A stretch of DNA of 64,000 nucleotides from Owenia fusiformis (taxonomy: Eukaryota; Annelida; Polychaeta; Sabellida; Oweniidae). Below the pieces are notes generated by a model that had not been told where the DNA came from, searched no databases, and saw only the letters and a list, made by a program, of their open reading frames with translations. Where the stretch lies: assembly GCA_903813345.2 (NCBI GenBank), contig CAIIXF020000002.1, forward strand, positions 906,001 through 970,000, written 5' to 3'. This document shows positions 9,094 to 62,583 of the stretch, in pieces. A program made the translations under genes and the position numbers. Within the stretch, counting starts at the first letter, position 1, and every line of letters begins with the position of its first letter.

Positions 9094-9153
9094 TAGCACG
9101 TATTTTGGAACTACTGGACTACTCCGACCGCCAAAGTGCATCTGCAGGGTGAA

Positions 9154-9399
9154 ATGGGGGATATCACCTCCCCCAATCGTGAGATAGAACGACTGAAGAG
9201 ACGATTCGATTTATACAGAGGTTCTCACTTGGACAGGGCAAATCAGTATGAACCTGCAGCTGATAGACTAAATGAACACAATCGTCAAGAAACAAAGATC
9301 CTTCAACAAAAATATTTAGAGAGCAGAGCAAAGAAAGCCTCAAAGAGACAACCAAAGGACTCGAGCAATGGCTCAGATAGCAAAAGCTCCGTAGTGACA
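9154..9399 (+). CDS. MAML: Mastermind-like protein, exon 1 (Notch/CSL-binding helix)
   Basis: This exon encodes the N-terminal 82 residues of a mastermind-like transcriptional co-activator, which in animals lies along the groove between the Notch intracellular ankyrin domain and the DNA-binding protein CSL. Residues 7-63 match the family's basic amphipathic helix: REIERLKRRFDLYRGSH, then NEHNRQET and YLESRAKKASKRQ. The start ATG at 9154 is the only in-frame ATG after the in-frame stop at 9094. An in-frame GTG at 9136 is not needed. The donor ACA|GTAAGTAG leaves phase 0, matching the acceptor at 35512. Family assignment rests on the helix plus the exon 2 content; homology to vertebrate MAML1-3 and fly Mam is from known family features, not a search. 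Confidence 0.85.
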
Positions 9400-10751
9400 G
9401 TAAGTAGTCTTTCTCAATATGACAACAACAGTCGAAATTGAATATAGGTCAAGTGTAATTTGAATGATTAAATATTTTGTTAACACCTGTTAATGGGGAT
9501 ATTACCATGTTAACAGTAGTCTACCTAAAGTTTCAGGTTCAATACTATTTATTAAGTCTTGTGAAGTGTGATATACATAATGAAATGACAGACATAAGTA
9601 CAAATGTTACTTCAAAGTTTACATGAATGTGTTTTATATAAAAATTGATTTATTAAAATGTCATCATTTGAAAAATTGTGACATCGGCAAAAAAGAACCA
9701 GCATCGTTGAATCAAGTTTGGATAATTCAAGTTCTTCCATCGATGTTTCGTTTTCTGTTGGAACAAATACCAGTTCTAAATTAATATGTCCAGTCCTTCT
9801 TATAAGTGATTTAAACTTATCTTTTGTGTCTAAATTTATATTTTTTCATATTTGATTGATACGAAAATTGAAAAATCATTACATCATCAAAAAGAACTGG
9901 ACATCATTAAAGCAAGTCTAGATTATTCCGGTTGTCACAGGTTATCTGTTTTCCATATTAACTAGATATATCCAGTTCTTATAACTCATTTAACCTTTCT
10001 TTTATTTTATATTCTTACAGTAACAGTCATAACTTAGCCATAGTATTTCCCCATATTTTACTTTCAAATAATTTAGTTATTATCTGGTTAGTTATATAAT
10101 TTCTTGTTTCGTAAATATAAGTATACAGTCCTATGTCAATGTACTCCTACATGTCCTAACTCTACATATATACAAATATAGATAGGTATTTCTTGACCAG
10201 TATGACTCAAATGGATGTTTTGGAGCTATTGATATGTACTGATGATTAAGCTATATTAATATAGATCTCAAAATTAACATCTAATAGAATGTAATCTGTA
10301 CATGTATGTCTTTTCTATTTTGAAGTACTTTCAATTACTTTTAAATGAAGCCATTAATCAGCATTTACGTTAGGTGTATTTCCTGTGACGTTTACGATGT
10401 GTGTATACTTTGAGAGATAATTGTTCAAAATTGCCAAATGAGGAATATAATTTTTACTGACTGTATTATGTATAATATATACAAGTAATAAGTAGCCATA
10501 ATTATATCTACCTTACAGCGAGATTGTGTAAGAGGTATTATTGATATCTGATGATAATTTAAAAATGAACAAAACATTGGTATTCTTGAAAAGTTAAATT
10601 CTTCAAAATTTTACCAGTTGTAAGTTAAGCGTTAAAGTGAAAAGAGACTATTTCCAAGAGATGCTTATTCCCTAGATCTTACCTATATATTCCATTCTGA
10701 TTTATTCATCTTGCTATATGTTTGTGAGACTTCTCTCTTGTATACTAATAT

Positions 10752-24875: not shown

Positions 24876-25811
24876 CATATTAATATAGCCATTGAAAATT
24901 GATTTCTCTTGAACTCAATATCAATGAAAGACCTAAAAACAGTGATTGAGGAATACTAATGTCAAATCACAGGTTTATTAATCATTGCTTTAAACTTTCA
25001 ATTGAAAGGGTAATGTTCTGCAGGTGTAGTGTATATTCATTGTCTGATCATTAAATAATACAGTAATACCTGTACAGGTGCAACACTCTTGCAGTTGTAC
25101 CCATTGTACCCCCCCCCCACTCTGACTATGCCTATGCAGCCATATATCTGGTACCCTGCATTCCACAACCCTGTACCCCACATAGCAGCCTGTATGGTTT
25201 ATACCCCATATACCAGGTGCTCCACTTAAAAGAGGTATTCAACTCATCAAGTTTAATTGTACTGTACAACAGCTAGTATATAGTACATTATACTGGTATT
25301 ATAGCATCACTTTATGACCCTTTAATTATTAATCATAGGGCTTCACTATCAACTATTGATATACATAAATGATCTACCACAGCTCACCTTGCAGATTGAT
25401 TACCTGCAATTGTATATTTGATTCGTAATTAAACATGATATTGTGTATCATTTAGTAAGCTATGTAGCCATTTTAGTAAGATTCTACAATATACCCTTTT
25501 AAAATAACCTTAAATACTCTTTTTGAATAACTGTAAAAATTCCTTGTTTAAGAGTTTTTTTGCATTTTCATCATATTATTACTAGCCTCTGTGTTTGATG
25601 GTACTAATTCTCCAGGATATGTTTTACTGTATAATAGTGCTAATTACTGGGCTTTAAGTGCTTAATTATTTATGATAATTAGTGTAAACACTGCCTTTGT
25701 AGATTTACGAGCAATTATAATCTTCAGAATATCACTGTACTAGTGCCTTGTGAAATATGGTCACTCATCAATTGCTTACCCTTTTTTGTATGTAATTTTT
25801 TGAGTCTGTAA

Positions 25812-27914: not shown

Positions 27915-28525
27915 CATCACCCACCAAATGCAATTAACCCACCAAATGCACTTTACCCACCAAATGCACTTAACCCACCAAATGCACTTTACCCACCAAA
28001 TGCACTTAACCCACCAAATGCACTTAATCCACCAAATGCACTTTACCCACCAAATGCACGTTACCCACCAAATGCACTTTACCCACCAAATGCACTTAAC
28101 CCACCAAATGCACTTAACCCACCAAATGCACTTAACCCACCAAATGCACTTAACCCACCAAATGTACTTAACCCACCAAATGCACTTAACCCACCAAATG
28201 CACTTAACCCACCAAATGCACTCAACCCACCAAATGCACTTAACCCACCAAATGCACTTAACCCACCAAATGCGCTTAACCCACCAAATGCACTCAACCC
28301 ACCAAATGCACTCAACCCACCAAATGCACTTTACCCACCAAATGCACTCAACCCACCAAATGCACTTAACCTACGAAATGCACTCAACCCACCAAATGCA
28401 CTTAACCCACAAAATGTACTTAACCCACCAAATGCACTTAACCTACCAAATGCACTCAACCCACCAAATGCACTTAACCCACCAAATGCACTTAACCCTC
28501 CAAATGCACTTAACCCACCAATCCC
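27915..28525. repeat. 18-bp minisatellite (CCACCAAATGCACTTAAC)
   Basis: About 33 almost perfect copies of an 18-bp unit, changed mainly at the ACTTAAC/ACTTTAC/ACTCAAC position. Because 18 is a multiple of 3 and the unit lacks stops, open frames run through on both strands (repeating NPPNAL on plus, GGLSAF on minus). These are array artefacts in an intron and no gene is called. Confidence 0.9.
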
Positions 28526-30332: not shown

Positions 30333-31475
30333 AGTGATCTCCCATTGGATCAACCAGATCTCCCATTGGATCAACCAGATCTCCCATTGGATCAATCAGA
30401 TCTCCCATTGGATCAATCATATCTCCCATTGGATCAACCAGATCTCCCATTGGATCAATTAGATCTCCTATTGGATCAACCAGATCTCCCATTGGATCAA
30501 CCAGATCTCCCATTAGATCAACTAGATCTCCCATTGGATCAACCAGATCTCCTATTGGATCAACCAGATCTCCCTTTGGATCAATCAGATCTCCTATTGG
30601 ATCAACCAGATCTCCCATTGGATCAACCAGATCTCCCATTGGATCAACCAGATCTCCCATTAGATCAACTAGATCTCCCATTGGATCAACCAGATCTCCC
30701 ATTGGATCAACCAGATCTCCCATTGGATCAACTAGATCTCCCATTGGATCAACTAGATCTCCCATTGGATCAATCAGATCTCCCATTGGATCAACCAGAT
30801 CTCCCATTGGATCAACCAGATCTCCCATTGGATCAACCAGATCTCCCATTAGATCAACTAGATCTCCCATTGGATCAACCAGATCTCCCATTGGATCAAC
30901 CAGATCTCCCATTGGATCAACTAGATCTCCCATTGGATCAACTAGATCTCCCATTGGATCAATCAGATCTCCCATTGGATCAACCAGATCTCCCATTGGA
31001 TCAACTAGATCTCCCATTGGATCAACTAGATCTCCCATTGGATCAACTAGATCTCCCATTGGATCAACCAGATCTCCTATTGGATCAACTAGATCTCCTA
31101 TTGGATCAACTAGATCTCCCATTGGATCAACCGGGTGCCACACCCTGTTGAACATTCAAAATTAATTGTCACCCTGTTGAAATTTGTTTGCACCTATTTA
31201 TCAAAAGTATGTAATATTGAGATATTTTGACTAAACAGGCCTGTTATATTTAGCACTGTTGAAAAAACAAGCAAAATTTGAATTTAATACCCCGTTGAAA
31301 AACAAACAAAATGAGGATGTAACAACATGTTGAGAAAACATAAAAAGGATTCAGCACCTTGTTGAAAAAACGAGCAAAATTTAGATTTAGCACCATGTTG
31401 ACAAAGAAAAGGTACAATTAATGATAGTCCTTCAATCTATTCAGCACTTGCTTGCTTCAATGATGGGTTGATCAC
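30333..31475. repeat. 21-bp minisatellite grown inside a CAGTGATCTCC-family MITE
   Basis: About 38 copies of AGATCTCCCATTGGATCAACC run from 30340 to about 31130. The first unit reads CAGTGATCTCCCATTGG, which is the terminal repeat of the MITE family. After the array come GTGCCACACC, TTGCACCTATTTATC, TTTTGACTAAA and CAGCACTTGCTTGCTTCAATGATGGGTTGATCAC-type text (last part: CAATGATGGGTTGATCAC), i.e. the family's interior and other end in diverged form. The 277-codon frames on both strands are artefacts of a stop-free 21-bp unit. Confidence 0.8.
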
Positions 31476-34455: not shown

Positions 34456-35512
34456 GGTGGTCTATCCTTACCTCCTTAGCCATAGATCAGTTTAATGCCT
34501 GTAGTTGTCTAAGATTACCTCCTTATCTCTGACAAAAATGTGAGAAAATATAGTAGGTGACAAAAGATATCTCATATTCCAGTCTTGAATAATAAGGGAG
34601 TTGCAGTATAGCTGAATACAGCTTAATAAATAGATGTCAGCACTTGTTTTTATTTGCCTTGATTGGGTCAGACTGTCATAGGCTTCAATTGTAAAAATAT
34701 AGAAACTTCTCAATTGTATAGTTTGTATTTAGGTTATAAACCTAAATTGCATCTTTTAAGCTGTCTCTGATTGAAGGCAGGTTATTCTACTAAGATTAGA
34801 TGAGAGATTAGATTGAATTGTTATCTGACATAGGGAGGACTCATTGCTATATTGCAAAAACTGTAGATGCATCATTGATTTAATATAATTGTTAAATGTG
34901 AGCCTAAGAGGCTGAGATATGAGCTTAGGAGTGAGGTAGGACATAAATGGGTGAGTTGAGAGAAGATTGTGAACTTAGATGGTTAGGTATGAAGGGGTGA
35001 GGGGCTGAATAATGAACTGAGATGTGAGGGGTGATGATTAGATGAATTACCAAACAATTGTTTGTTTGGCAAATTAGTGTTTAAGCAAACAAATAAAAAA
35101 CAAGCAAACTAATGATAGAATAGTAAATAGAAGAGTTTGAGGACTATAAAATGCTTCCTCAATTCTGTGAGTTACTTAATAAACAATATAAATCACCAAT
35201 TTATGACAATATTATATGCCTAATAAGGTATATTGAAATCCTATGAAGTCTTGCATATAAGTCAAGAACCTTATACAAATCTGTAAATAATCTATTTGTG
35301 CACTATACTGAACCAAATACAATGGTTTTTCTGGCTCATATGTAGGACTAATTAATTAACCATGTGAAGACAGATCCACATAATGAGAATCTTGGTTCGG
35401 ATTAGATTAGGTTTTATACTGTATATATTTGCTAATTTCCATGACTTTTAATATTTCCTTGTTTTTGTAAATAAAAATTGATGAAATTAAATCTATACCC
35501 TCTCTGTTGCAG

Positions 35513-38278
35513 CAGAAGCTGAAGAGGAAGTTGGATTCAAACAGTGGTATCGACCCAAACGGTCACGTCAACGATAATACAAATCCATATAACTTCGATG
35601 ACCAAGCATCGCCGTCTCAGCCCAAGAAACCATACACGAGTAAAAATGGTGAAGCTCCACCTAGTGGGGGCATGGAGAATCAGATTTCGGTAAGGATCGT
35701 CCAGGAAATCAACCCGAGCACAGATCAAAAACAGACAATACAAACCGACGTCACGGTTAGTTCAACATTTAAGCAAGGAGAAAATACAAACTTTACGTCA
35801 AGTGGCACGACGAGTACCCAAGTTACGACAAACACTACGAGTGAATTTAAACAAGAAAATCTTGATGTTCCACAGGGACATGGTTCAACTTCATCCGATC
35901 TAGAAAAATTAGAGGATTTGGATGACATTGAAGACATTTTGAAATCATTGGAAAAAGGAGATGAAAGTTTAATTGACAATTTCATTGAAAATGATGATGA
36001 TAAACACGCACTAGACGCTGTCTTTGCGGAAACTAATTCACCGATGTCATCACTTCCCAATGACATGAATGACTTGTTCGATAAACAACCCCCACCCCCT
36101 ATGACAACCCAGCCTCAGAATGTTCCACCCCCTCCCTGTCCTCCTAATGGTGCAGGACCAGCTCCAGCCCCTGCCCCCGCGAGTTTCCCACGTCCCCAAA
36201 GTAATCCACCTATTGCCAATCAAACATATGCCTTGCAGGCAGGAGAGACACTTAAACGTATGGCCGCCCAGCATCAGACTGGCGGAGTCCCAGGGCAGCC
36301 TGACACATTCAGACCGCAACAAGGTGGGCCCCCTAGTGCTTCCATGGGGCAAGACCCATCTACACCATTCCAGCCCCCGCCCAGAGGTTACCCTCCTGGT
36401 CCTGGGTTCCAGCAACAAAACCTTACCCAGAATCCAACCAGTAATATGTACCCATACACCCACCAGACCAGGGCACAGGGGGTACCTACACCTTCCCAGC
36501 ATCCTCATCAAGGGATTCCTGCGCCGGGGCAGTCTCCTCCACCTACTATGGGACCTCGTGGTAGTCACCCACACCCTAATTATCCTGGTGGTATGATACC
36601 GTCATATGGGGCTACAAAACCTCTCTCACATTTCCCAGATCCTATGGGGAACAATAACCCATCAGCTAACTCCCTGCAGCAGTTACAGAACCAGGTCAGA
36701 GCCCAGTTCACCCCTGGAGCCCAGGGGCCAGGTCACATGGGTCAGCAGATGCAAATCAACCAATCACAACAGATACAGATGAGTCAGCATGGCAACCAAC
36801 ACATGCAGGTTAACCAATCACAACAGATGCAGCTGAATAACCATAGCAACCAACAGATCTCAATGAATCAGCAACAGAGCTTTACTATGACTGGTGCAGC
36901 TAACCCAATGGGTGCCCCTGGCCCTAGACAACAGGGACCAACCAACACAAACTATGCTAGTGAACAAAATGCAAAACGCATGATGGCTGAAAAGTTGCGA
37001 TTAGAAAGAGAGGCCAAAATGCGTGAGCATCAGCGAATGGAACAACAGCGTCACCATGCTGCTATGGAGCAGCACCGTCAGCAAGAAGCAGCGATGGAAC
37101 AGCATCGTCAGCAGCAGCAGGCAGCGATGGAGCAGCAGCAACGTCAAATGCAGCAGCAGCAATATATGAATCGGCCACCCCCAGAGTATAAGGGGCCAAT
37201 GGGCAGTCAGCAAGTACAAGGTCAGAGTAACCCGTTACAGACCATGCAGAAGATGGTAAGTGGGACCAGCCAGCCACCCCAGCCTCACCCAGGCATGATG
37301 CAGCCAAAGACAGAGCCACCGCATCCAACCATGATGCAGATCAAAACAGAGCCTCTTATCCCTGGGCCTGGGCAGCCACCAAATATGACTATTAAATCCG
37401 AGCCTCAGATGCAGATTCCTGGTGCCCCAGGGACAGTCAGAGGAGGTGCCCCAAGGACATACTCACCTATAACATGCCAGGGGTACCCCACCCCCAATCC
37501 ATCATCATCCCTACCCAGTTATACAGTCAAGGCTGAACCGCGGTCCCAGCAGATGTATTCAACCAATCAAAATCCAATGATGTCCTCATTCCAAACACGG
37601 CCGCAGGGTCAAAACAATCCCATGTACACTAGTGCAATAATGCGCAACCAGAAACCCCCAAATGTAAACGTTGGCCCAGAGGGCTTGAATATATCGCAGC
37701 AGCGCCCTGGTGCTGATTGGTCGAGACAAATGTCCAATCCAGGTGCAGGATCTCAAATGAACATGCCAAATAATCTAGTTGCTAGAAGAGACAGTGCCAG
37801 TATGGCACAATACATGGCACAGCAACAGCAATCTCATAGGCAAGTCTCCGTGGCAACCAATGGACCCCTTGGACAAAATCAAATACAAATGCAGCAGCAT
37901 TACTCTCAGCAACAGCAACAAATTAGTAGTGGCCATCCCATGCAAAACAGTGCCATGCTACAACAACAACAACAACAACAACAGCAACAACAACAAAGTA
38001 TGCAAATGCATTTGCAACAACAACAACAGCAACACATGTCATCTATAAGCATTACCGAGTCACAATCAGTCTCCATGGCAACCACTCAGCAACAACAAGT
38101 GCAACAGCATTTACAGCAACGGTCTCAACAGCAACAGCAAGCACCCCCACCACAACAACATAATTCAACAAGTGGCAATGACTTTTCTCTAGATCAACTC
38201 TTGGACACTGCAAGTAGTAACAATGGTCTATTTGAAAACATACAACCGGATTTATTAGATGAAATATTTGGCAAATAG
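35513..38278 (+). CDS. MAML: Mastermind-like protein, exon 2 (activation domains)
   Basis: This large exon encodes residues 83-1003 of a mastermind-like Notch co-activator. It opens with a basic QKLKRKLD patch. An acidic stretch at about 211-250 (LEKLEDLDDIEDILKSLE) is followed by MSSLPNDMNDLFD at about 260-272, in the place of the family's p300/CBP-contacting region. Then comes a long Pro/Gln/Gly/Met-rich disordered body, a charged Gln-rich helix at about 565-633, and four KxEP motifs at about 680-755 of the kind sumoylated in MAML1. Poly-Gln runs (up to 12) precede the conserved C-terminus, FSLDQLLDTA to LLDEIFGK. Total length (1003) is close to human MAML1. The whole activation region is one exon, whereas vertebrate genes divide it. 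Confidence 0.9.
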   Translation, partial: QKLKRKLDSNSGIDPNGHVNDNTNPYNFDDQASPSQPKKPYTSKNGEAPPSGGMENQISVRIVQEINPSTDQKQTIQTDVTVSSTFKQGENTNFTSSGTTSTQVTTNTTSEFKQENLDVPQGHGSTSSDLEKLEDLDDIEDILKSLEKGDESLIDNFIENDDDKHALDAVFAETNSPMSSLPNDMNDLFDKQPPPPMTTQPQNVPPPPCPPNGAGPAPAPAPASFPRPQSNPPIANQTYALQAGETLKRMAAQHQTGGVPGQPDTFRPQQGGPPSASMGQDPSTPFQPPPRGYPPGPGFQQQNLTQNPTSNMYPYTHQTRAQGVPTPSQHPHQGIPAPGQSPPPTMGPRGSHPHPNYPGGMIPSYGATKPLSHFPDPMGNNNPSANSLQQLQNQVRAQFTPGAQGPGHMGQQMQINQSQQIQMSQHGNQHMQVNQSQQMQLNNHSNQQISMNQQQSFTMTGAANPMGAPGPRQQGPTNTNYASEQNAKRMMAEKLRLEREAKMREHQRMEQQRHHAAMEQHRQQEAAMEQHRQQQQAAMEQQQRQMQQQQYMNRPPPEYKGPMGSQQVQGQSNPLQTMQKMVSGTSQPPQPHPGMMQPKTEPPHPTMMQIKTEPLIPGPGQPPNMTIKSEPQMQIPGAPGTVRGGAPRTYSPITCQGYPTPNPSSSLPSYTVKAEPRSQQMYSTNQNPMMSSFQTRPQGQNNPMYTSAIMRNQKPPNVNVGPEGLNISQQRPGADWSRQMSNPGAGSQMNMPNNLVARRDSASMAQYMAQQQQSHRQVSVATNGPLGQNQIQMQQHYSQQQQQISSGHPMQNSAMLQQQQQQQQQQQQSMQMHLQQQQQQHMSSISITESQSVSMATTQQQQVQQHLQQRSQQQQQAPPPQQHNSTSGNDFSLDQLLDTASSNNGLFENIQPDLLDEIFGK

Positions 38279-46254: not shown

Positions 46255-47205
46255 ACAATAGATTGATATCTTGTTTTTCCTCACATCTTTCTGGCTTTCA
46301 TTGCAGCAGTGGGATGTCACTGTTTATCAATGACGGGATATTCTGATCTTGTTTTTCCTCACATCTTTCTGGCTTTCATTGCAGCAGTGGGATGTCACTG
46401 TTTATCAATGACGGGATATTCTGATCTTGTTTTTCCTCACATCTTTCTGGCTTTCATTGCAGCAGTGGGATGTCACTGTTTATCAATGACATCTTTCTGG
46501 CTTTCATTGCAGCAGTGGGATGTCACTGTTTATCAATGACGGGATATTCTGATCTTGTTTTTCCTCACATCTCTCTGGCTTTCATTGCAGCAGTGGGATG
46601 TCACTGTTTATCAATGACATCTTTCTGGCTTTCATTGCAGCAGTGGGATGTCACTGTTTATCAATGACATCTTTCTGGCTTTCATTGCAGCAGTGGGATG
46701 TCACTGTTTATCAATGACATCTTTCTGGCTTTCATTGCAGCAGTGGGATGTCACTGTTTATCAATGACATCTTTCTGGCTTTCATTGCAGCAGTGGGATG
46801 TCACTGTTTATCAATGACGGGATATTCTGATCTTGTTTTTCCTCACATCTCTCTGGCTTTCATTGCAGCAGTGGGATGTCACTGTTTATCAATGACATCT
46901 TTCTGGCTTTCATTGCAGCAGTGGGATGTCACTGTTTATCAATGACATCTTTCTGGCTTTCATTGCAGCAGTGGGATGTCACTGTTTATCAATGACATCT
47001 TTCTGGCTTTCATTGCAGCAGTGGGATGTCACTGTTTATCAATGACATCTTTCTGGCTTTCATTGCAGCAGTGGGATGTCACTGTTTATCAATGACATCT
47101 TTCTGGCTTTCATTGCAGCAGTGGGATGTCACTGTTTATCAATGACATCTTTCTGGCTTTCATTGCAGCAGTGGGATGTCACTGTTTATCAATGACGGGA
47201 TATTC
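46255..47205. repeat. Composite minisatellite, 50-bp and 78-bp units
   Basis: The 50-bp unit runs CATCTTTCTGGCTTTCATTG, CAGCAGTGGGATGTCACTGT, TTATCAATGA. The 78-bp form adds a 28-bp insert (CGGGATATTCTGATCTTGTT plus TTTCCTCA). Long units lead at the left, then short ones, and a block of long-short-short order recurs near 46520 and 46800. Each unit has TTTCATTGCAG|CAG, a good-looking splice acceptor repeated about 17 times. Confidence 0.9.
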
Positions 47206-52295: not shown

Positions 52296-52376
52296 AATTT
52301 AATATAGGATCATCAACAAAATATATTTCATTACATTCTTATCAGACTCTCGTGTCATGAAAGAACAAACGTGAAC

Positions 52377-53789
52377 ATGCAGAAATACATTTCCCTTTTT
52401 GTGGGAATACTTTGTACATTTTTGGGAGGAGTTTTGTATTGCTTCAACACGTATGCAGTCGCATTGAAAGCTACATTCAACTACACACAAATAGATTTAG
52501 AGCATATTTTTATAAGTGCCGATGTAGGCCAAAGTTTTATGCTCCCCGCCGGATTTGTATTTGATAAATTTGGACCTAGAGTTGTAAGTTTATTTGGTCT
52601 GATTTTCACTGGAGCTGGATTCGCACTACTTTGGATGGCAACAAAGTTTCAAACATTTTTCGCTACTAATGCCTGGCTGGGCTGTATAATATATTTTCTT
52701 ACACTATTTGGAACAACATTTTCGTATATAGCAGCTATAAGTGTTAACTACAGAAATTTTGGAAAAAATTATAGAGGTGTAATACTAGGGATTCTCTCCG
52801 CTGTATTTGGGGTTGCTGCAGCAATATACAGCGCCATCTATCAAGGCTTTTTTGTTCAAGGTCACATAGAAGATGCCGAGAACCAAAAATATGGAGATTT
52901 TATGCTGTCCCTTGCTGTGCTTAATGTAATCATTAATTCCTTTGCGATAGGCCTACTTAAGGAAATTCCAAATGAGAAAATATGTGATGCAAATGAAAGT
53001 AGTGAATTGAACGATCTCTTCAAAACATGCAAAGAAAACAAAGTTGCTGATAACCAAAGTACTGTAGATGAAAGCGGAAATGAGAAAAAATCATTGATTT
53101 CAAATGACAACATTCCATTCCCGCCAAATCTGAATGCTTGGCAAACCTTAAAAACGGTGCAATTTTATTACCTTTTTACAATAACTTGTATTTTAGTGGG
53201 AACTGGTGCTACATATATCAACAATATCTCGACTGTCTTGAAATCCATTAATAGAGAAAATAATATTGCAGTTTTTACAATAACCCTCCCAATTTTTAAT
53301 GCATTAGGTAGAATGAGCAGTCCTTTGGGATTCAATTATATTTGTATGAAATGGCCTAACATACCAATTTCGGCAAGTCTCTTACATTGTGTTATTTCAA
53401 TGTTTATAGGTCTACTTGTTATGCCTTTTTCCTATCATGAATTTGTTGGCTTATTCATTAGCGCGCTTTTGATCAGCTTTGCGTTTGGGTCATTTTATGC
53501 ACAAATTCAATGGGTCTTTATGGAATTATATGGTGTAAAATACATTGGACAAATCCTAGGTCTCGTATTTGCGGCACATGGCCTGGGTTTGTTTGGACTT
53601 CAACAATTGTTTGGCTTTAGTTACAAATTGAATAGCCTGGAAGGATCCAATGAGTGTTACGGTGAATCTTGTTCAAAGAGATTGGTTGTTTTACTTGCAA
53701 TTTTATGCTTTTGTGCATTGTTTTTAAATATTTGTTTGATCAAAATAGAAAGAGATGGCCTGCTAAAGCGAAAAGAAAACGTTAAATAA
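52377..53789 (+). CDS. MFS transporter, nodulin-like type, intronless
   Basis: This encodes a 470-residue, twelve-segment membrane transporter of the major facilitator superfamily. The N-terminal half has nodulin-like layout: GGVLYCFNTYAVALKATFNY in TM1, then ADVGQSFMLPAG, a motif-A-like FDKFGPR after TM2, and NYRGVILGILSAVFGVAAAI in TM4-5. A hydrophilic loop of about 70 residues (ANESSELNDL to EKKSLISNDN) separates the halves. TM7-12 follow and a basic tail (ERDGLLKRKE) ends it. The ATG at 52377 is the first in frame; an upstream GTG is not needed. There is no intron, unusual beside the heavily split genes here. The substrate cannot be told: known nodulin-like MFS members carry varied small solutes or have no known substrate. 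Confidence 0.75.
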   Translation: MQKYISLFVGILCTFLGGVLYCFNTYAVALKATFNYTQIDLEHIFISADVGQSFMLPAGFVFDKFGPRVVSLFGLIFTGAGFALLWMATKFQTFFATNAWLGCIIYFLTLFGTTFSYIAAISVNYRNFGKNYRGVILGILSAVFGVAAAIYSAIYQGFFVQGHIEDAENQKYGDFMLSLAVLNVIINSFAIGLLKEIPNEKICDANESSELNDLFKTCKENKVADNQSTVDESGNEKKSLISNDNIPFPPNLNAWQTLKTVQFYYLFTITCILVGTGATYINNISTVLKSINRENNIAVFTITLPIFNALGRMSSPLGFNYICMKWPNIPISASLLHCVISMFIGLLVMPFSYHEFVGLFISALLISFAFGSFYAQIQWVFMELYGVKYIGQILGLVFAAHGLGLFGLQQLFGFSYKLNSLEGSNECYGESCSKRLVVLLAILCFCALFLNICLIKIERDGLLKRKENVK

Positions 53790-58011: not shown

Positions 58012-58150
58012 TTAATAAAGAATTGGAATAGGTTTCTTCTTTCTCAAGCTTCCTTCGCCACATTCAGAGTTCCATGTTCCATCAGCGTTACAGCAAAGCG
58101 TCTCCAGGGCGTTTCCTGCCCCAGTGGGCACCCAATCATCGAACGTGCAC
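58012..58150 (-). CDS. Cysteine-rich gene, terminal exon D
   Basis: On the minus strand the acceptor TTCCTTTTGCATTTTAG precedes the exon. It takes two bases from the upstream exon (phase 2), giving 45 codons and a TAA at 58014-58012. Content: CTFDDWVPTG, ETLCCNADGTWNSECGEG and a basic tail. Phase and Cys start match exons A and C. Exon E ends GA|, so E to D reads ..MPE-CTFDDW. It appears to be the last exon of an unrecognised, probably secreted, cysteine-rich protein. The donor and acceptor quality and matching phases support it; the family is unknown. Confidence 0.55.
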
Positions 58151-58281
58151 CTAAAATGCAAAAGGAACATAGGCTATAAAGAGCGATTGGAAGAATCTTT
58201 ATATAAAGATGGCAGCGTTGCAGCAAAGCGTCCCCAGGGCCTTTTCCTGCACCAGTGGACACCCAATCATCGAACGTACAC
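58046..58281 (-). CDS. Duplicated terminal exon D' (alternative or decayed)
   Basis: A 131-bp tandem duplication places a second copy of exon D's start at 58281, again after a good acceptor (TTCCTTTTGCATTTAAG) and in the same phase. The reading begins CTFDDWVSTGAGK. One extra base compared with D then shifts the frame, after which the sequence stays open through the D copy to a stop near 58046. It could be an alternative 3' exon with a different tail or a decaying duplicate; nothing decides between these. Confidence 0.35.
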
Positions 58282-58508
58282 CTTAAATGCAAAAGGAACA
58301 CAGGCTTATAGGACACGCATGCACCCGATAAACTATGAAAATATGAATAGGGCTTAAAAGTATTATCAATTAAATATGTTAATCGCCAAAAATGGTTTAG
58401 ACAAGAATGATATTGCCGACTATGGTGCACTCCCAATATATACACCCCCTTAATAAGTTTCGAAACATATGTTACCACATATGTTACACTCCCCACATAT
58501 ATACGTAC

Positions 58509-58630
58509 TCTGGCATTCTGTTGAAAGCACCTACAAACTCCCCTGGGGGTAAGATAGGCAGATTGACACCATCCACCCCTGGATTGTCTCTGATCTGCTC
58601 ACAAAACCTTTGACCCTTAGGAACGTTATC
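58509..58630 (-). CDS. Cysteine-rich gene, exon E
   Basis: Minus strand, acceptor CTTAATTTCAG at 58631 and donor CCAGA|GTACGT. The 122-nt exon enters in phase 0 and leaves in phase 2, encoding DNVPKGQRFCEQIRDNPG, then VNLPILPPGEFVGAFNRMP. Entry phase 0 matches the end of exons A and C, and exit phase 2 matches the start of D and D'. One Cys is present. The Pro-rich PILPPGEF stretch looks like a linker. Family not recognised. Confidence 0.6.
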
Positions 58631-59342
58631 CTGAAATTAAGACGACCGGATGTACGATGAAATGAGGGTTATAAGAAGATGGTCATAATTGCAATATATA
58701 TTTGCTGTTTTTTCCATGTCATGTTCATTTTCCAAGTCTAACATTCCTTTTTTATTTCAGGATAAAATTTTGCTTTTAAGCTAAATTGGAATTGTTGCAT
58801 CTTATAATATTCAAATTACTAAAAACATCAACTAACATTGGGAAACATTTGCAAAGATTGGCAAAGATTGGCAAACATTGGTTTTTGAAGCTAATATAAT
58901 TATGGTTAACGCTCTCCTTCCTTTTTACTTTCTGTTAGTGATGCTCATGTGAATTCTTTCGTGAGCAGCCACTTTTTGGCATGAAAACATTAAGCCTCTA
59001 TCAAATTAGATTTTCAAATGTTTAGTTTGAAAATTCATCAATGGGTTCTGTAACCATCCTTAATAATCCTTATACTCAATCTCAACATAACGTGACTTGA
59101 GCTAGCGATAAAGAAAAAAAACATGGTAGATGGCTGAAACCTCTCACGGTGTTCTATGAGAATTCCAATCTCCAATTTTATTTATTTATAAGAACGATAA
59201 AAATCACTGTGACCATTCTCCGAACGCAGGGATCCAGACGTCATCTCTGTTCCGAATGAAGGAACCGAATGGATGATGTCTGTAGCCGTGCGTTCGGATG
59301 ATGCCTAAAGAAGAGATTGCGAACTACGCAGACATAGCTTAC

Positions 59343-59526
59343 ATTCGGCAGAGGGTCAGCAAATGTACTATCCAATAGAATAGTTTCTGCTTCAAAACGG
59401 CAAGTTTCCTCGCACAAGACATCAACACTACAATCTTGATATGTATCAACAAATACTGTGTAAAGATTGGGTCCCTTATATTCAAAGAACCAATCATCCG
59501 TTGTGAGAAAAAGCGAACAGTCGCAC
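59343..59526 (-). CDS. Cysteine-rich gene, exon A (184 nt)
   Basis: Minus strand, acceptor GCTGTATTACAG and donor CCGAAT|GTAAGC. The 184-nt exon enters in phase 2 and exits in phase 0, encoding 61 full codons: CDCSLFLTTDDWFFEYKGP, then DCSVDVLCEETCRFEAE and ADPLPN. Five cysteines (two near the start, then a C-x5-C-x3-C group). Exon C, 1 kb upstream in the gene, has the same length, phases and cysteine plan and about half identical residues. A MITE (59583-60174) sits just 5' of its acceptor. Confidence 0.6.
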
Positions 59527-59582
59527 CTGTAATACAGCATGGTTGCCATGGTTACAAACTGTTACTTTTGTTAAGTAATTCA

Positions 59583-60174
59583 TGCCTCAGTCACAATGCT
59601 ACAGCCGTACGACAGCCGTACGGCGCAGTTTGAATTTGTGGAAACAGAAAGTCTACCCCGGACAAATAAGGCCATTCTGTTACTCAGACCATCTCTGCAA
59701 TGCACAGGAAATCGTTATAGAAAGGAAATCGTTCTAGAAAGGAAACTGAGAGAAGGCTGTGATATCTCACGATGATATAAGGCCTTTAATGGGATACAGC
59801 ACACGTTTACCTTAAAGCGTCCTAAATACCTAGGGAGAGGCAACCATAAGGGGACCGTACGTTGACCATACGGGGACCGTACGTTGACCGTACGGGGAAC
59901 CGTACAGAGTCTAATTTCAACAGCGACCGCAGTTATGAAAAAAGTCTCTGTTCAACAGCGACCGCAGTTATGAAAAAAGTCTCTGTGCTACAATAGAGGA
60001 TTTGCAAAAAAGCTTTAGAAATCTCATTGAAATCTCATTTTAGCGAGATGACAGGAGAGCCATGGCGACCCCTGGCTACAGGCTGTAAAAAACTGGGATA
60101 AGCCTTATGTCGACAAGACGTTGTTGAATTTTCTGCGGCCGTAGGCTCGCAACAGAGCAAATGTGACTGAGGCA
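59583..60174. mobile_element. 592-bp MITE in the intron before exon A
   Basis: The left end TGCCTCAGTCACAATGC and the right end GCAAATGTGACTGAGGCA are inverted. Both arms continue to a CGGCGCAG or CTGCGGCCG word. It is related by its ends to the MITEs at 25812 and 56787. Inside are several CCGTACGG palindromes (59606-59632, 59855-59907) and a 37-bp direct repeat of ACAGCGACCGCAGTTATGAA. No ORF. Confidence 0.7.
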
Positions 60175-60252
60175 TAAGAGTTGCTCTAACTAGAACGAGA
60201 GGAAACTTTCAAACATACAAATTAGTCCGTAGAACTCGTTCCCGGAAGATTA

Positions 60253-60432
60253 TCAAGCACTTTTTAAAAATGGTGCTGAAAATAACCATTTCAGTATTTT
60301 TACATTTACTGGTTTTCCTACATTTATCTGTGTACCTAACCATGCTGTATGTACAGAATAAATAGACAATACGTCTTCGGAATCAGGGTTTTTATAAAAG
60401 ATGGCAGCACAGATGGGCATTTGGCAACGTAA
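60253..60432 (-). CDS. Possible exon-E-like relic B
   Basis: After an AG at 60433 (weak acceptor, no pyrimidine tract) the minus strand reads LRCQMPICAAIFYKNPDSED and stays open to a stop at 60253. The C-x2-I-x3-NP spacing recalls exon E's CEQIRDNP, and it lies 74 bp downstream of exon C's donor, where an E-type exon would be expected in a tandem module. No donor in the right phase is visible, so it may be a decayed copy or chance. Confidence 0.2.
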   Translation of the reverse strand, partial: LRCQMPICAAIFYKNPDSEDVLSIYSVHTAWLGTQINVGKPVNVKILKWLFSAPFLKSA

Positions 60433-60506
60433 CTGATTTTTCGAAATGCTCAGTGTGCCAGACAGGTCCAATCAAGAAGTGATAAGCAACGATGTATTTT
60501 CCTTAC

Positions 60507-60690
60507 GTTTGGTAAAGGTGTACTCAGAGGTTCGTCGAGGATATCTTCCGAATCGAATCGGCAATTTTCGTCACAAATTTCCGCGTCAAAGGCACAATCT
60601 TCGTGAGTTGCATTCGAAACAAGATGGAGGATCGGGCCTTTATCTTCATCAAAGTAATCATCGGTGGCCAGTTTGATAGCACACGTGCAA
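60507..60690 (-). CDS. Cysteine-rich gene, exon C (184 nt), homologue of exon A
   Basis: Minus strand, acceptor TTCTATATAG and donor CCAAAC|GTAAGG. It encodes CTCAIKLATDDYFDEDKGP, then DCAFDAEICDENCRFDSE and TPLPN. Length, phases (2 in, 0 out), five-cysteine plan and the LxTDDxFxExKGPxL, CRFxxExIL and PLPN words are shared with exon A. An NAT glycosylation sequon lies at residue 26 of the exon. Shared exit phase 0 means it can splice to exon E but not to exon A in frame. Confidence 0.6.
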
Positions 60691-60900
60691 CTATATAGAA
60701 TTTAAAAAAGTGGGTTAGCGTTTACGGTTTTGGGTCGAGGCACGGAAATTCAGTCATATATTTCTAGAAAAGTTTAATTTAATGTTGGTGCTAGTCTTTC
60801 AAATGTGTTATGATGGTTAGATAACCCCGGGATACTTCGAAACAACTATTACGTAGCCCTCTTGGATATTTTTGAGTTCCAATGCATGATCGGAACATAC

Positions 60901-60950
60901 CTTGTGTGCTTGGATATACCATGGACGAGGGGTATCCCGGGGCGAACTAT
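60901..60950 (-). CDS. Cysteine-rich gene, small upstream exon F
   Basis: Minus strand, donor CACAAG|GTATGT at 60900. In the frame that exits in phase 2 it reads IVRPGIPLVHGISKHT, and the last two bases AG plus the T of exon C make a Ser codon before CTC. The acceptor is ambiguous: TATATGAAG| (50 nt) or GAAGATAG| (46 nt). It resembles the Pro-rich end of exon E in type. The first exon and signal peptide were not found. Confidence 0.4.
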
Positions 60951-61216
60951 CTTCATATAAAGAGGTCAGTTTTACATGGCGAAAGTTTCATTCATGAATT
61001 CTGGGACATAATAATTTCGTCAAAAACAGTACTTATCAAAATATTCTCGGGCTCGGGGCTTAACGGACTTGTTTGGCAATTAAAAAAGGTTTGGCAATAA
61101 ATTGCACAACTGCATGGTTTAGGTACACAGATCACAATAACTATTATTCAATCAATGGGCTAACGATTTTTGTTACGCAACCTGAGATAGCCGAAGATGT
61201 TTCAAACCTAACCCAA

Positions 61217-61392
61217 ACCCACTGGGGGATCCGGGGGGGGGGGGGGCTGGATGCCAGTGGATGGACCCAGAAAAATATTTTTTGGGCTCAAAAATTGTAG
61301 GGCCTCAATTAGTGGTCCTATTACTTGACCTTTTTGGCCTTATTCTTTAGTATTCGGCCAAATTATCAAAAATGGGCCTTAAATCTCCAAAA
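61217..61392 (+). mobile_element. hAT-like G-rich element fragment
   Basis: Starts CACTGGGGGATCCGGGGGG, then TGGACCCAGAAAAATATTTT, GGGCTCAAAAATTG and GGGCCT words shared with 48200-48381 and 63205-63370. The right terminal repeat is absent, and a foldback element begins where it would be. Confidence 0.5.
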
Positions 61393-61910
61393 TCACTGTT
61401 CCACAACTAGTTACTTTGACGGAACGTCAATGTAACAAAATGGATGAACTTCCTGGATCCGCGTTTTTTGTTTCCTCGATTAAAACCTACTAATAAGTCA
61501 AGTTGCGAATTATCATTTGGCACAAAGTTAGACAATATAGTCTAGCCTTTAGAAATGCTCTCGGTTTTGAATTTGATTTATAAAGCTGTTATTGTCTTAT
61601 TGATGTATTTAGACCATCGCTTTTGTTACATTGACGTAAGTCGTCAAAGTAACATACATTGGTAATATAATGGACTTTCGTCAATGTAACAAAAGCAAAG
61701 GACTAAATATATGAATTGCAACTTCATTAACAAAATAAATTACAAATCGAAGAAAAGCAAGACTATATTTTCTAGCTTTGCGCCAAATTATAATCTGCAA
61801 CTTGACTTATAAGAAGCTTTAAATCGACAAAACAAAAAACTCGTAACCAGGAAGTTCCTCCATTTTGTTACACTGACGTTTCGTCAAAGTAACTAGTTGT
61901 GGAACAGTGA
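61393..61910. mobile_element. 518-bp foldback element with nested palindromes
   Basis: The outer ends TCACTGTTCCACAACTAGTT and AACTAGTTGTGGAACAGTGA are perfect inverted repeats. The arms continue to pair through CAAAATGGA and GAACTTCCTGG. Three short palindromes of the form GTTACNNTGACG..CGTCAANGTAAC sit at both tips and near the centre (61627-61655). Inner arms also pair (GCTTTTGTTACATTGACG against CGTCAATGTAACAAAAGC). The whole could fold into one long stem. No coding capacity. Confidence 0.8.
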
Positions 61911-62189
61911 AAATATGGACCCAGTTTTTGTTTTTATGACTCGAAATGTGCTCCCCTTTTTAGCTTCTGTATCCACCAGTGAAACCCTAATCCTAACCAT
62001 AACCCCTAAATCGAAAGAATTGGAAATTCGCTCGACTCGACCATCTCCAATATTGCGTAGCAACGATGCTCTCCCCATTCAATAGAAGCTTACGAAACAC
62101 TTTGACCATCCACGGACACTGCGGCCAAAACGAGGGCGGCTATCAACAGCATTTCCCTATCTACTCTCCTATGACGGTCTATAATAAAA

Positions 62190-62360: not shown

Positions 62361-62583
62361 ATATCTGTCAAAATGAGCTCCTAGAAGCTCATCTTAACAT
62401 AGAGATAGGATAGTCTATGAATACTGGATATTTTCTTTTCTTAGTATGAAAGTTCAACGTTTGCCAACCGGAAGTTGCACTTTGGACCACGTGAACTTTT
62501 TATGCTTTAAGCTATTTGAAGAAACAAATCTAGAAAAATAGTTGGCAAACAAAATTAAATTCAATAAAAACAACATGTAATAA

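What the first reader, a model, noticed from the sequence alone, without database searches (positions are those of the whole stretch)
58012..60950. Candidate mutually exclusive exon pair in an unrecognised cysteine-rich gene
Exons A (59343-59526) and C (60507-60690) on the minus strand are both exactly 184 nt, start in phase 2, end in phase 0 and share a five-cysteine plan with about half identical residues. Since 184 is not a multiple of 3, using both in one transcript breaks the frame. Either one fits between exon F (phase 2 out) and exon E (phase 0 in). Such constraints mark mutually exclusive alternative splicing in animals. The alternative is two decayed tandem gene modules.
Basis: partly seen in the sequence, partly recalled or inferred. 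Interest (0 to 1): 0.8.

Follow-up and report, generated by a model that had tools for sequence, protein, structure and literature searches.

The report
Candidate either-or exons in secreted protein
An unannotated animal gene for a small secreted cysteine-rich protein carries two diverged versions of the same exon, and the reading frame allows only one of them at a time, so the gene probably makes two alternative proteins; this is a known kind of arrangement and needs RNA evidence.

Summary
The exon pair is real. A (59343-59526) and C (60507-60690), minus strand, are each 184 nt, phase 2 to 0, with AG/GT borders. They are homologous (tblastn E about 1e-14; 30 of 60 aligned codons and 5 of 5 cysteines kept). 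Synonymous sites are saturated (pS 0.93) while pN is 0.33, so both stayed protein-coding long after the duplication. They are the only two copies found in the 64 kb.

A better first exon, H (62094-62152, MLLIAALVLAAVSVDGQSV, phase 2 out), lies upstream; it was found only after I relaxed a threshold. H-C-E-G and H-A-E-G each give a complete 167-residue protein with 10 cysteines. Using both exons, or neither, gives an early stop.

No second E or G and no convincing signal exon lies between C and A, which argues against two gene copies. Best reading: a mutually exclusive exon-2 pair enforced by reading frame (about 50%). Rivals: one exon recently dead, tandem-gene or alternative-promoter remnants, or joint use through weak sites. 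No transcript or homologue was available. It would be a new member of a known kind.

The parts
62094..62152 (-). Exon H, proposed first coding exon: MLLIAALVLAAVSVDGQSV plus split codon TC, phase 2 out, donor GTAAGC
   Evidence: The split codon reads TCT with C and TCG with A, serine in both. Missed (donor threshold -1; its donor scores -1.4) and found after relaxing the threshold.
60507..60690 (-). Exon C, 184 nt, phase 2 to 0, 61 codons, 5 Cys (alternative exon 2)
59343..59526 (-). Exon A, 184 nt, phase 2 to 0, 61 codons, 5 Cys (alternative exon 2)
58509..58630 (-). Exon E, 122 nt, phase 0 to 2, one Cys, shared exon 3
   Evidence: Acceptor in the top 0.8% and donor in the top 10.2% of sites; gives open H-C-E-G and H-A-E-G
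58012..58150 (-). Exon G, last coding exon, 4 Cys, stop TAA
   Evidence: Acceptor in the top 1.3%
58213..58310 (-). G', frameshifted partial copy of the start of G and its acceptor, about 90% identical
59582..60175 (.). 594-bp element with 14-bp perfect terminal inverted repeats inside the C-A intron
60338..60356 (-). Stem arm in the C-A intron, complementary to the acceptor of exon A
59527..59544 (-). Other stem arm: last 18 intron bases before exon A, acceptor AG included
   Evidence: 18 of 18 bases paired in the predicted fold, with or without the element
60901..60956 (-).
   Evidence: Overlaps an arm of an inverted repeat; not signal-like; good donor

Best explanation
A four-exon gene on the minus strand (58012-62152) encodes a small secreted cysteine-rich protein. 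Exon 1 (H) gives the signal peptide; exon 2 is a choice between two ancient tandem copies, C or A; exons 3 (E) and 4 (G) are shared. Because exon 2 enters in phase 2 and leaves in phase 0, exactly one copy must be used: C plus A, or neither, meets an early stop, and such messages would be expected to be degraded or useless. The two products, 167 residues each with 10 cysteines, differ only in the first 61-residue cysteine module. Shown here: homology, frames, borders, constraint on both exons, open complete frames. Inferred: transcription, use of H, actual exclusive splicing, loss of wrong joins by nonsense-mediated decay, and a possible helper role for an 18-bp RNA stem that would cover the acceptor of A and so favour C-to-E joining.
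For: Homology. pS 0.93 and pN 0.33 with codon-position identities 36, 44 and 19 of 60. Placing all 81 differences without selection gives at most 25 identical residues in 4,000 runs against 30 seen, and all Cys kept in 0.1%. A copy neutral for 0.25 substitutions per site keeps an open frame and all 5 Cys in under 1% of 2,000 runs. Only one signal-like exon with highly hydrophobic core, a phase-2 donor and the right strand lies between 22 and 64 kb. Both spliced frames run to the stop in G, 167 residues and 10 Cys each; H-C-A-E-G stops after 91 residues and H-E-G after 52. No second E or G near. Score 44% of self against the 15% default of the published prediction method (PMC3228551, passages). 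In that paper 90 of 16,180 exons that are not mutually exclusive share these features. In humans 377 of 629 such clusters hold exons not divisible by three (PMC5740500, passages).
Against: No transcript data and no homologue: no relative in viral contigs or genome contigs, which are not animal collections. H was found only after relaxing a threshold (0 candidates, 7 rows), its donor is only in the top 17.6%, and 15 of 2,827 ATGs in the window pass a similar test, 8 of them copies of one tandem repeat. The acceptors of C and A are middling (top 9.5% and 6.5%; weights recalled, not trained on this species). A candidate 44-nt exon (59690-59733) inside the repeat element would join C to A in frame. 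The last exon has a broken partial copy, so decay does occur at this locus. [quoted passage not shown]
Confidence: 0.5

Rival explanations
1. Only one of C and A is used today; the other is a recently dead relic that still looks intact.
For: A copy neutral for 0.1 substitutions per site still keeps an open frame and all Cys in 12-16% of runs. A partial copy of G nearby is frameshifted.
Against: Both copies carry the full frame, the splice borders and 5 of 5 Cys after synonymous saturation, so death would have to be recent.
Confidence: 0.2
2. C and A are remnants of tandem gene copies, or second exons driven by separate promoters with their own first exons, sharing E and G.
For: Small secreted genes often lie in tandem arrays (general knowledge). 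A carries an in-frame ATG in the context ACCATGG 24 bases before its stated start, so A could begin a coding region. A second signal-like candidate lies at 62491-62576.
Against: No second E or G between C and A; no copy of H elsewhere in the window; the best signal-like candidate between C and A is weak (hydropathy 1.69, donor -2.8); A, C and their flanks share no intron similarity (18 and 24 of 80).
Confidence: 0.17
3. Both exons are used in one protein: C is joined to A in frame through an upstream acceptor of A (before 59558) or a small linker exon.
For: The in-frame acceptor exists, and a 44-nt phase 0-to-2 candidate exon at 59690-59733 has a strong acceptor.
Against: The alternative acceptor is in the bottom half of AG sites (53.5%). 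The linker lies inside a repeat element and 17.7% of 300 random 980-nt pieces offer one as good.
Confidence: 0.08
4. The wider gene model is wrong (E, G or H not exons of this gene), with C and A belonging to something else whose other exons lie outside the window.
For: E and G have no homologue and no family match; E alone is a short open frame.
Against: Frames, phases and a total of 10 Cys fit together in both versions; E and G acceptors are strong.
Confidence: 0.05

Closest known systems
Homologous mutually exclusive exons predicted by length, frame and similarity (WebScipio; Pillmann et al. 2011, PMC3228551, passages seen)
   Same: Neighbouring exons of equal length, same phases, GT-AG, score 44% of self against a 15% cut-off
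   Different: No annotated gene or transcript here; exclusive use not shown
Human mutually exclusive exons with lengths not divisible by three (Hatje et al. 2017, PMC5740500, passages and section 5 seen)
   Same: Joint inclusion shifts the frame; that paper counts 377 of 629 clusters with such lengths
   Different: Unknown animal, unknown protein family, no read support
Competing or masking RNA structures in exclusive splicing (Dscam, srp; PMC6071210, abstract and outline seen)
   Same: An 18-bp stem covers the acceptor of A
   Different: No docking and selector set was found: intron flanks of A and C are not alike, and pairing is only nominally significant
Tandemly arrayed gene duplicates (type C false positives of PMC3228551)
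   Same: Homologous exons side by side
   Different: Other exons are not duplicated in step

Membership tests
Mutually exclusive exon pair | Similar length | tested here: met
   184 and 184 nt, with two cancelling one-codon gaps
Mutually exclusive exon pair | Same splice-site type and same reading phase | tested here: met
   AG/GT borders, phase 2 in and 0 out for both
Mutually exclusive exon pair | Sequence homology | tested here: met
   E about 1e-14; 44% of self score
Mutually exclusive exon pair | Neighbouring internal exons with shared exons on both sides | tested here: inconclusive
   E and G downstream fit; H upstream fits but is a prediction
Mutually exclusive exon pair | Exactly one exon in each transcript | not testable with these tools
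   No RNA data held; only the frame argument
Mutually exclusive exon pair | A mechanism for exclusion | tested here: inconclusive
   Frame shift with early stop: met. The 980-nt intron is too long for the under-50-bp crowding cited in PMC5740500. No U12-like donor seen (consensus recalled). RNA stem at A: 13 of 1,000 shuffles as good, 0.005 in one of 16 tests
Tandem gene duplicates | Other exons of the gene duplicated in step with A and C | tested here: not met
   No second H or E in the window; the only second G is a recent broken copy beside G, not between C and A

The most novel reading that the evidence does not exclude
An ancient, still functional either-or exon pair in an undescribed secreted cysteine-rich protein family, in which the whole first cysteine module is swapped, both wrong splice outcomes are discarded by frame, and an RNA stem hiding the acceptor of A sets the choice.
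Probability: 0.15. Interest if true: 0.5.

Novelty: new member of a known kind. Interest (0 to 1): 0.35.

Why it matters
If confirmed it would give an orphan secreted protein two forms differing only in one cysteine module, and a compact test of how frame and RNA structure keep two exons apart. The gene model, corrected at its 5' end, makes the test direct: four junctions decide it. It does not change the understanding of splicing in general.

Tried and rejected
Rejected: exon F as the first exon (inverted repeat, not signal-like). A hidden phase 0-to-2 linker between C and A, as in a two-exon repeat module: 34 candidates, best a 44-nt stretch inside the repeat element, with no resemblance to E. 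Second copies of E or G between C and A. Similar intron flanks or selectors beside A and C.

Led nowhere: own genome not held; Rfam at gathering scores and tRNA scan empty; Pfam on the proposed proteins, and on three minus-strand frames of 49-64 kb only, gave nothing above cut-off; sequence search against solved structures gave one chance-level row, E 1.9, and none with the two-row profile; relatives in viral and genome contigs none; AlphaFold of exon A with C as its only alignment partner was unusable, mean pLDDT 47.7, so no fold search was run. Paper searches for such exons in cnidarians listed nothing recognisable as this gene; only listings were seen. PMC5224494 (U2AF1) was seen only as a listing; the look-up in it failed. 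PMC9013439 and PMC9741552 were seen as passages.

Splice-site weights and signal hydropathy rules are recalled general ones, not trained on this genome. The first signal-exon search (hydropathy at least 1.6, donor at least -1) found none in either interval; thresholds were then relaxed (0.8 and -3), giving 7 rows upstream and 5 between C and A.

Full report
What was claimed.

The pair is real. Both stretches are exactly 184 nt and the phase-2 frame is the only one open in both. They find each other with E about 1e-14 in a search of the whole window, and no third copy appears. A scan modelled on the published prediction method found 682 open candidates of suitable length and phase in the window; only C, and nested versions of A itself, pass the 15% score limit, C at 44%. 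The identical length is partly luck: the alignment needs two one-codon gaps that cancel.

Both exons have been under selection. Of 60 aligned codons 30 encode the same residue and all five cysteines match. Identity by codon position is 36, 44 and 19 of 60; pS is 0.93 (saturated) and pN 0.33. Placing the same number of differences at random gave at most 25 identical residues in 4,000 runs and kept all cysteines in 0.1%. A copy left neutral for 0.25 substitutions per site would keep its frame and cysteines in under 1% of 2,000 runs; at 0.1 in 12-16%. So long-dead modules are unlikely, but recent loss of one copy is possible.

The gene model. E is 122 nt, phase 0 to 2, and G runs to a TAA stop. 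A first search for a signal-peptide exon found none. After relaxing the donor limit, the most hydrophobic candidate upstream of C was MLLIAALVLAAVSVDGQSV at 62094-62152, ending in phase 2 at TTTC|GTAAGC. The split codon is TC plus T or G, serine with either exon. Over both strands of the window, 15 of 2,827 ATGs pass a similar test; 8 of those are copies of one tandem repeat, and this one has the highest hydropathy. By that loose test a chance candidate in 3.3 kb is not rare, so H is probable rather than proven; a second, weaker one lies at 62491-62576. H-C-E-G and H-A-E-G are both open over 167 residues with 10 cysteines, while H-C-A-E-G stops after 91 residues and H-E-G after 52.

Alternatives tested. 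If the locus were two gene copies, a second E, G or signal exon should lie between C and A. None was found there, and 594 of the 980 intron bases are a repeat element with 14-bp inverted ends. A hidden linker exon or an upstream acceptor could rescue joint use: a 44-nt candidate exists inside that element (17.7% of 300 random pieces do as well), and an in-frame acceptor before 59558 exists but is poor. A also has an in-frame ATG in the context ACCATGG just before it, so an alternative start cannot be excluded.

How exclusion might work. Frame shift is sufficient to make joint or absent use unproductive. Crowding is out at 980 nt and no U12-like donor is seen (consensus recalled). The last 18 intron bases before A pair with 60338-60356 in the predicted fold, 18 of 18, with the element present or left out. 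Duplex energy is -30.9 kcal/mol; 13 of 1,000 shuffles and 3.1% of other AG sites in the window do as well. In 16 such tests two reached 0.01 or less (A acceptor with the C-A intron, 0.005; C acceptor with the A-E intron, 0.01), so after allowing for 16 tests this is only suggestive.

What it is. Pfam, solved structures and contig collections give no relative, and the fold prediction of A was unusable. The window is from an animal, judging by a MamL-1 (Mastermind) domain at 9097-9441. The family of the protein, and whether a relative is already described, could not be settled with the collections at hand.

Verdict. Published surveys make such pairs a known kind: 377 of 629 human clusters have lengths not divisible by three (PMC5740500, passages), but only 1,399 of 6,541 candidates were verified by reads.

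Noticed in passing
window 59582-60175: 594-bp element with 14-bp perfect inverted ends (ATGCCTCAGTCACA); three more end-like matches at 25811, 56786 and 57880 with up to two mismatches (five in all, 0.49 expected by chance).
   Followed up: partly
window 58213-58310: Partial copy of the start of exon G with its acceptor, about 90% identical, with a one-base insertion that shifts the frame; splicing into it would give a different C-terminus.
   Followed up: partly
window 61393-61910: Inverted repeat with 158-nt arms, 87% complementary, inside the proposed H-C intron.
   Followed up: no
window 9097-9441 and 35471-38278: MamL-1 domain exon (E 1.3e-12) and a 935-codon Q/P-rich open frame with a weak, below cut-off Mastermind-like match: probably a Mastermind gene spanning about 29 kb on the plus strand.
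   Followed up: partly
window 52308-53789: 493-codon open frame with Nodulin-like (2e-18) and MFS_1 (4.4e-16) matches, a transporter without introns in this stretch.
   Followed up: no
window 46268-47196: Nearly perfect 50-nt tandem repeat with 78- and 128-nt higher-order units; each unit holds CTTTCATTGCAG, which looks like a splice acceptor.
   Followed up: no
window 27919-28521 and 30336-31132: Minisatellites of 18 nt (33.5 copies) and 21 nt (38 copies), open in several frames.
   Followed up: no
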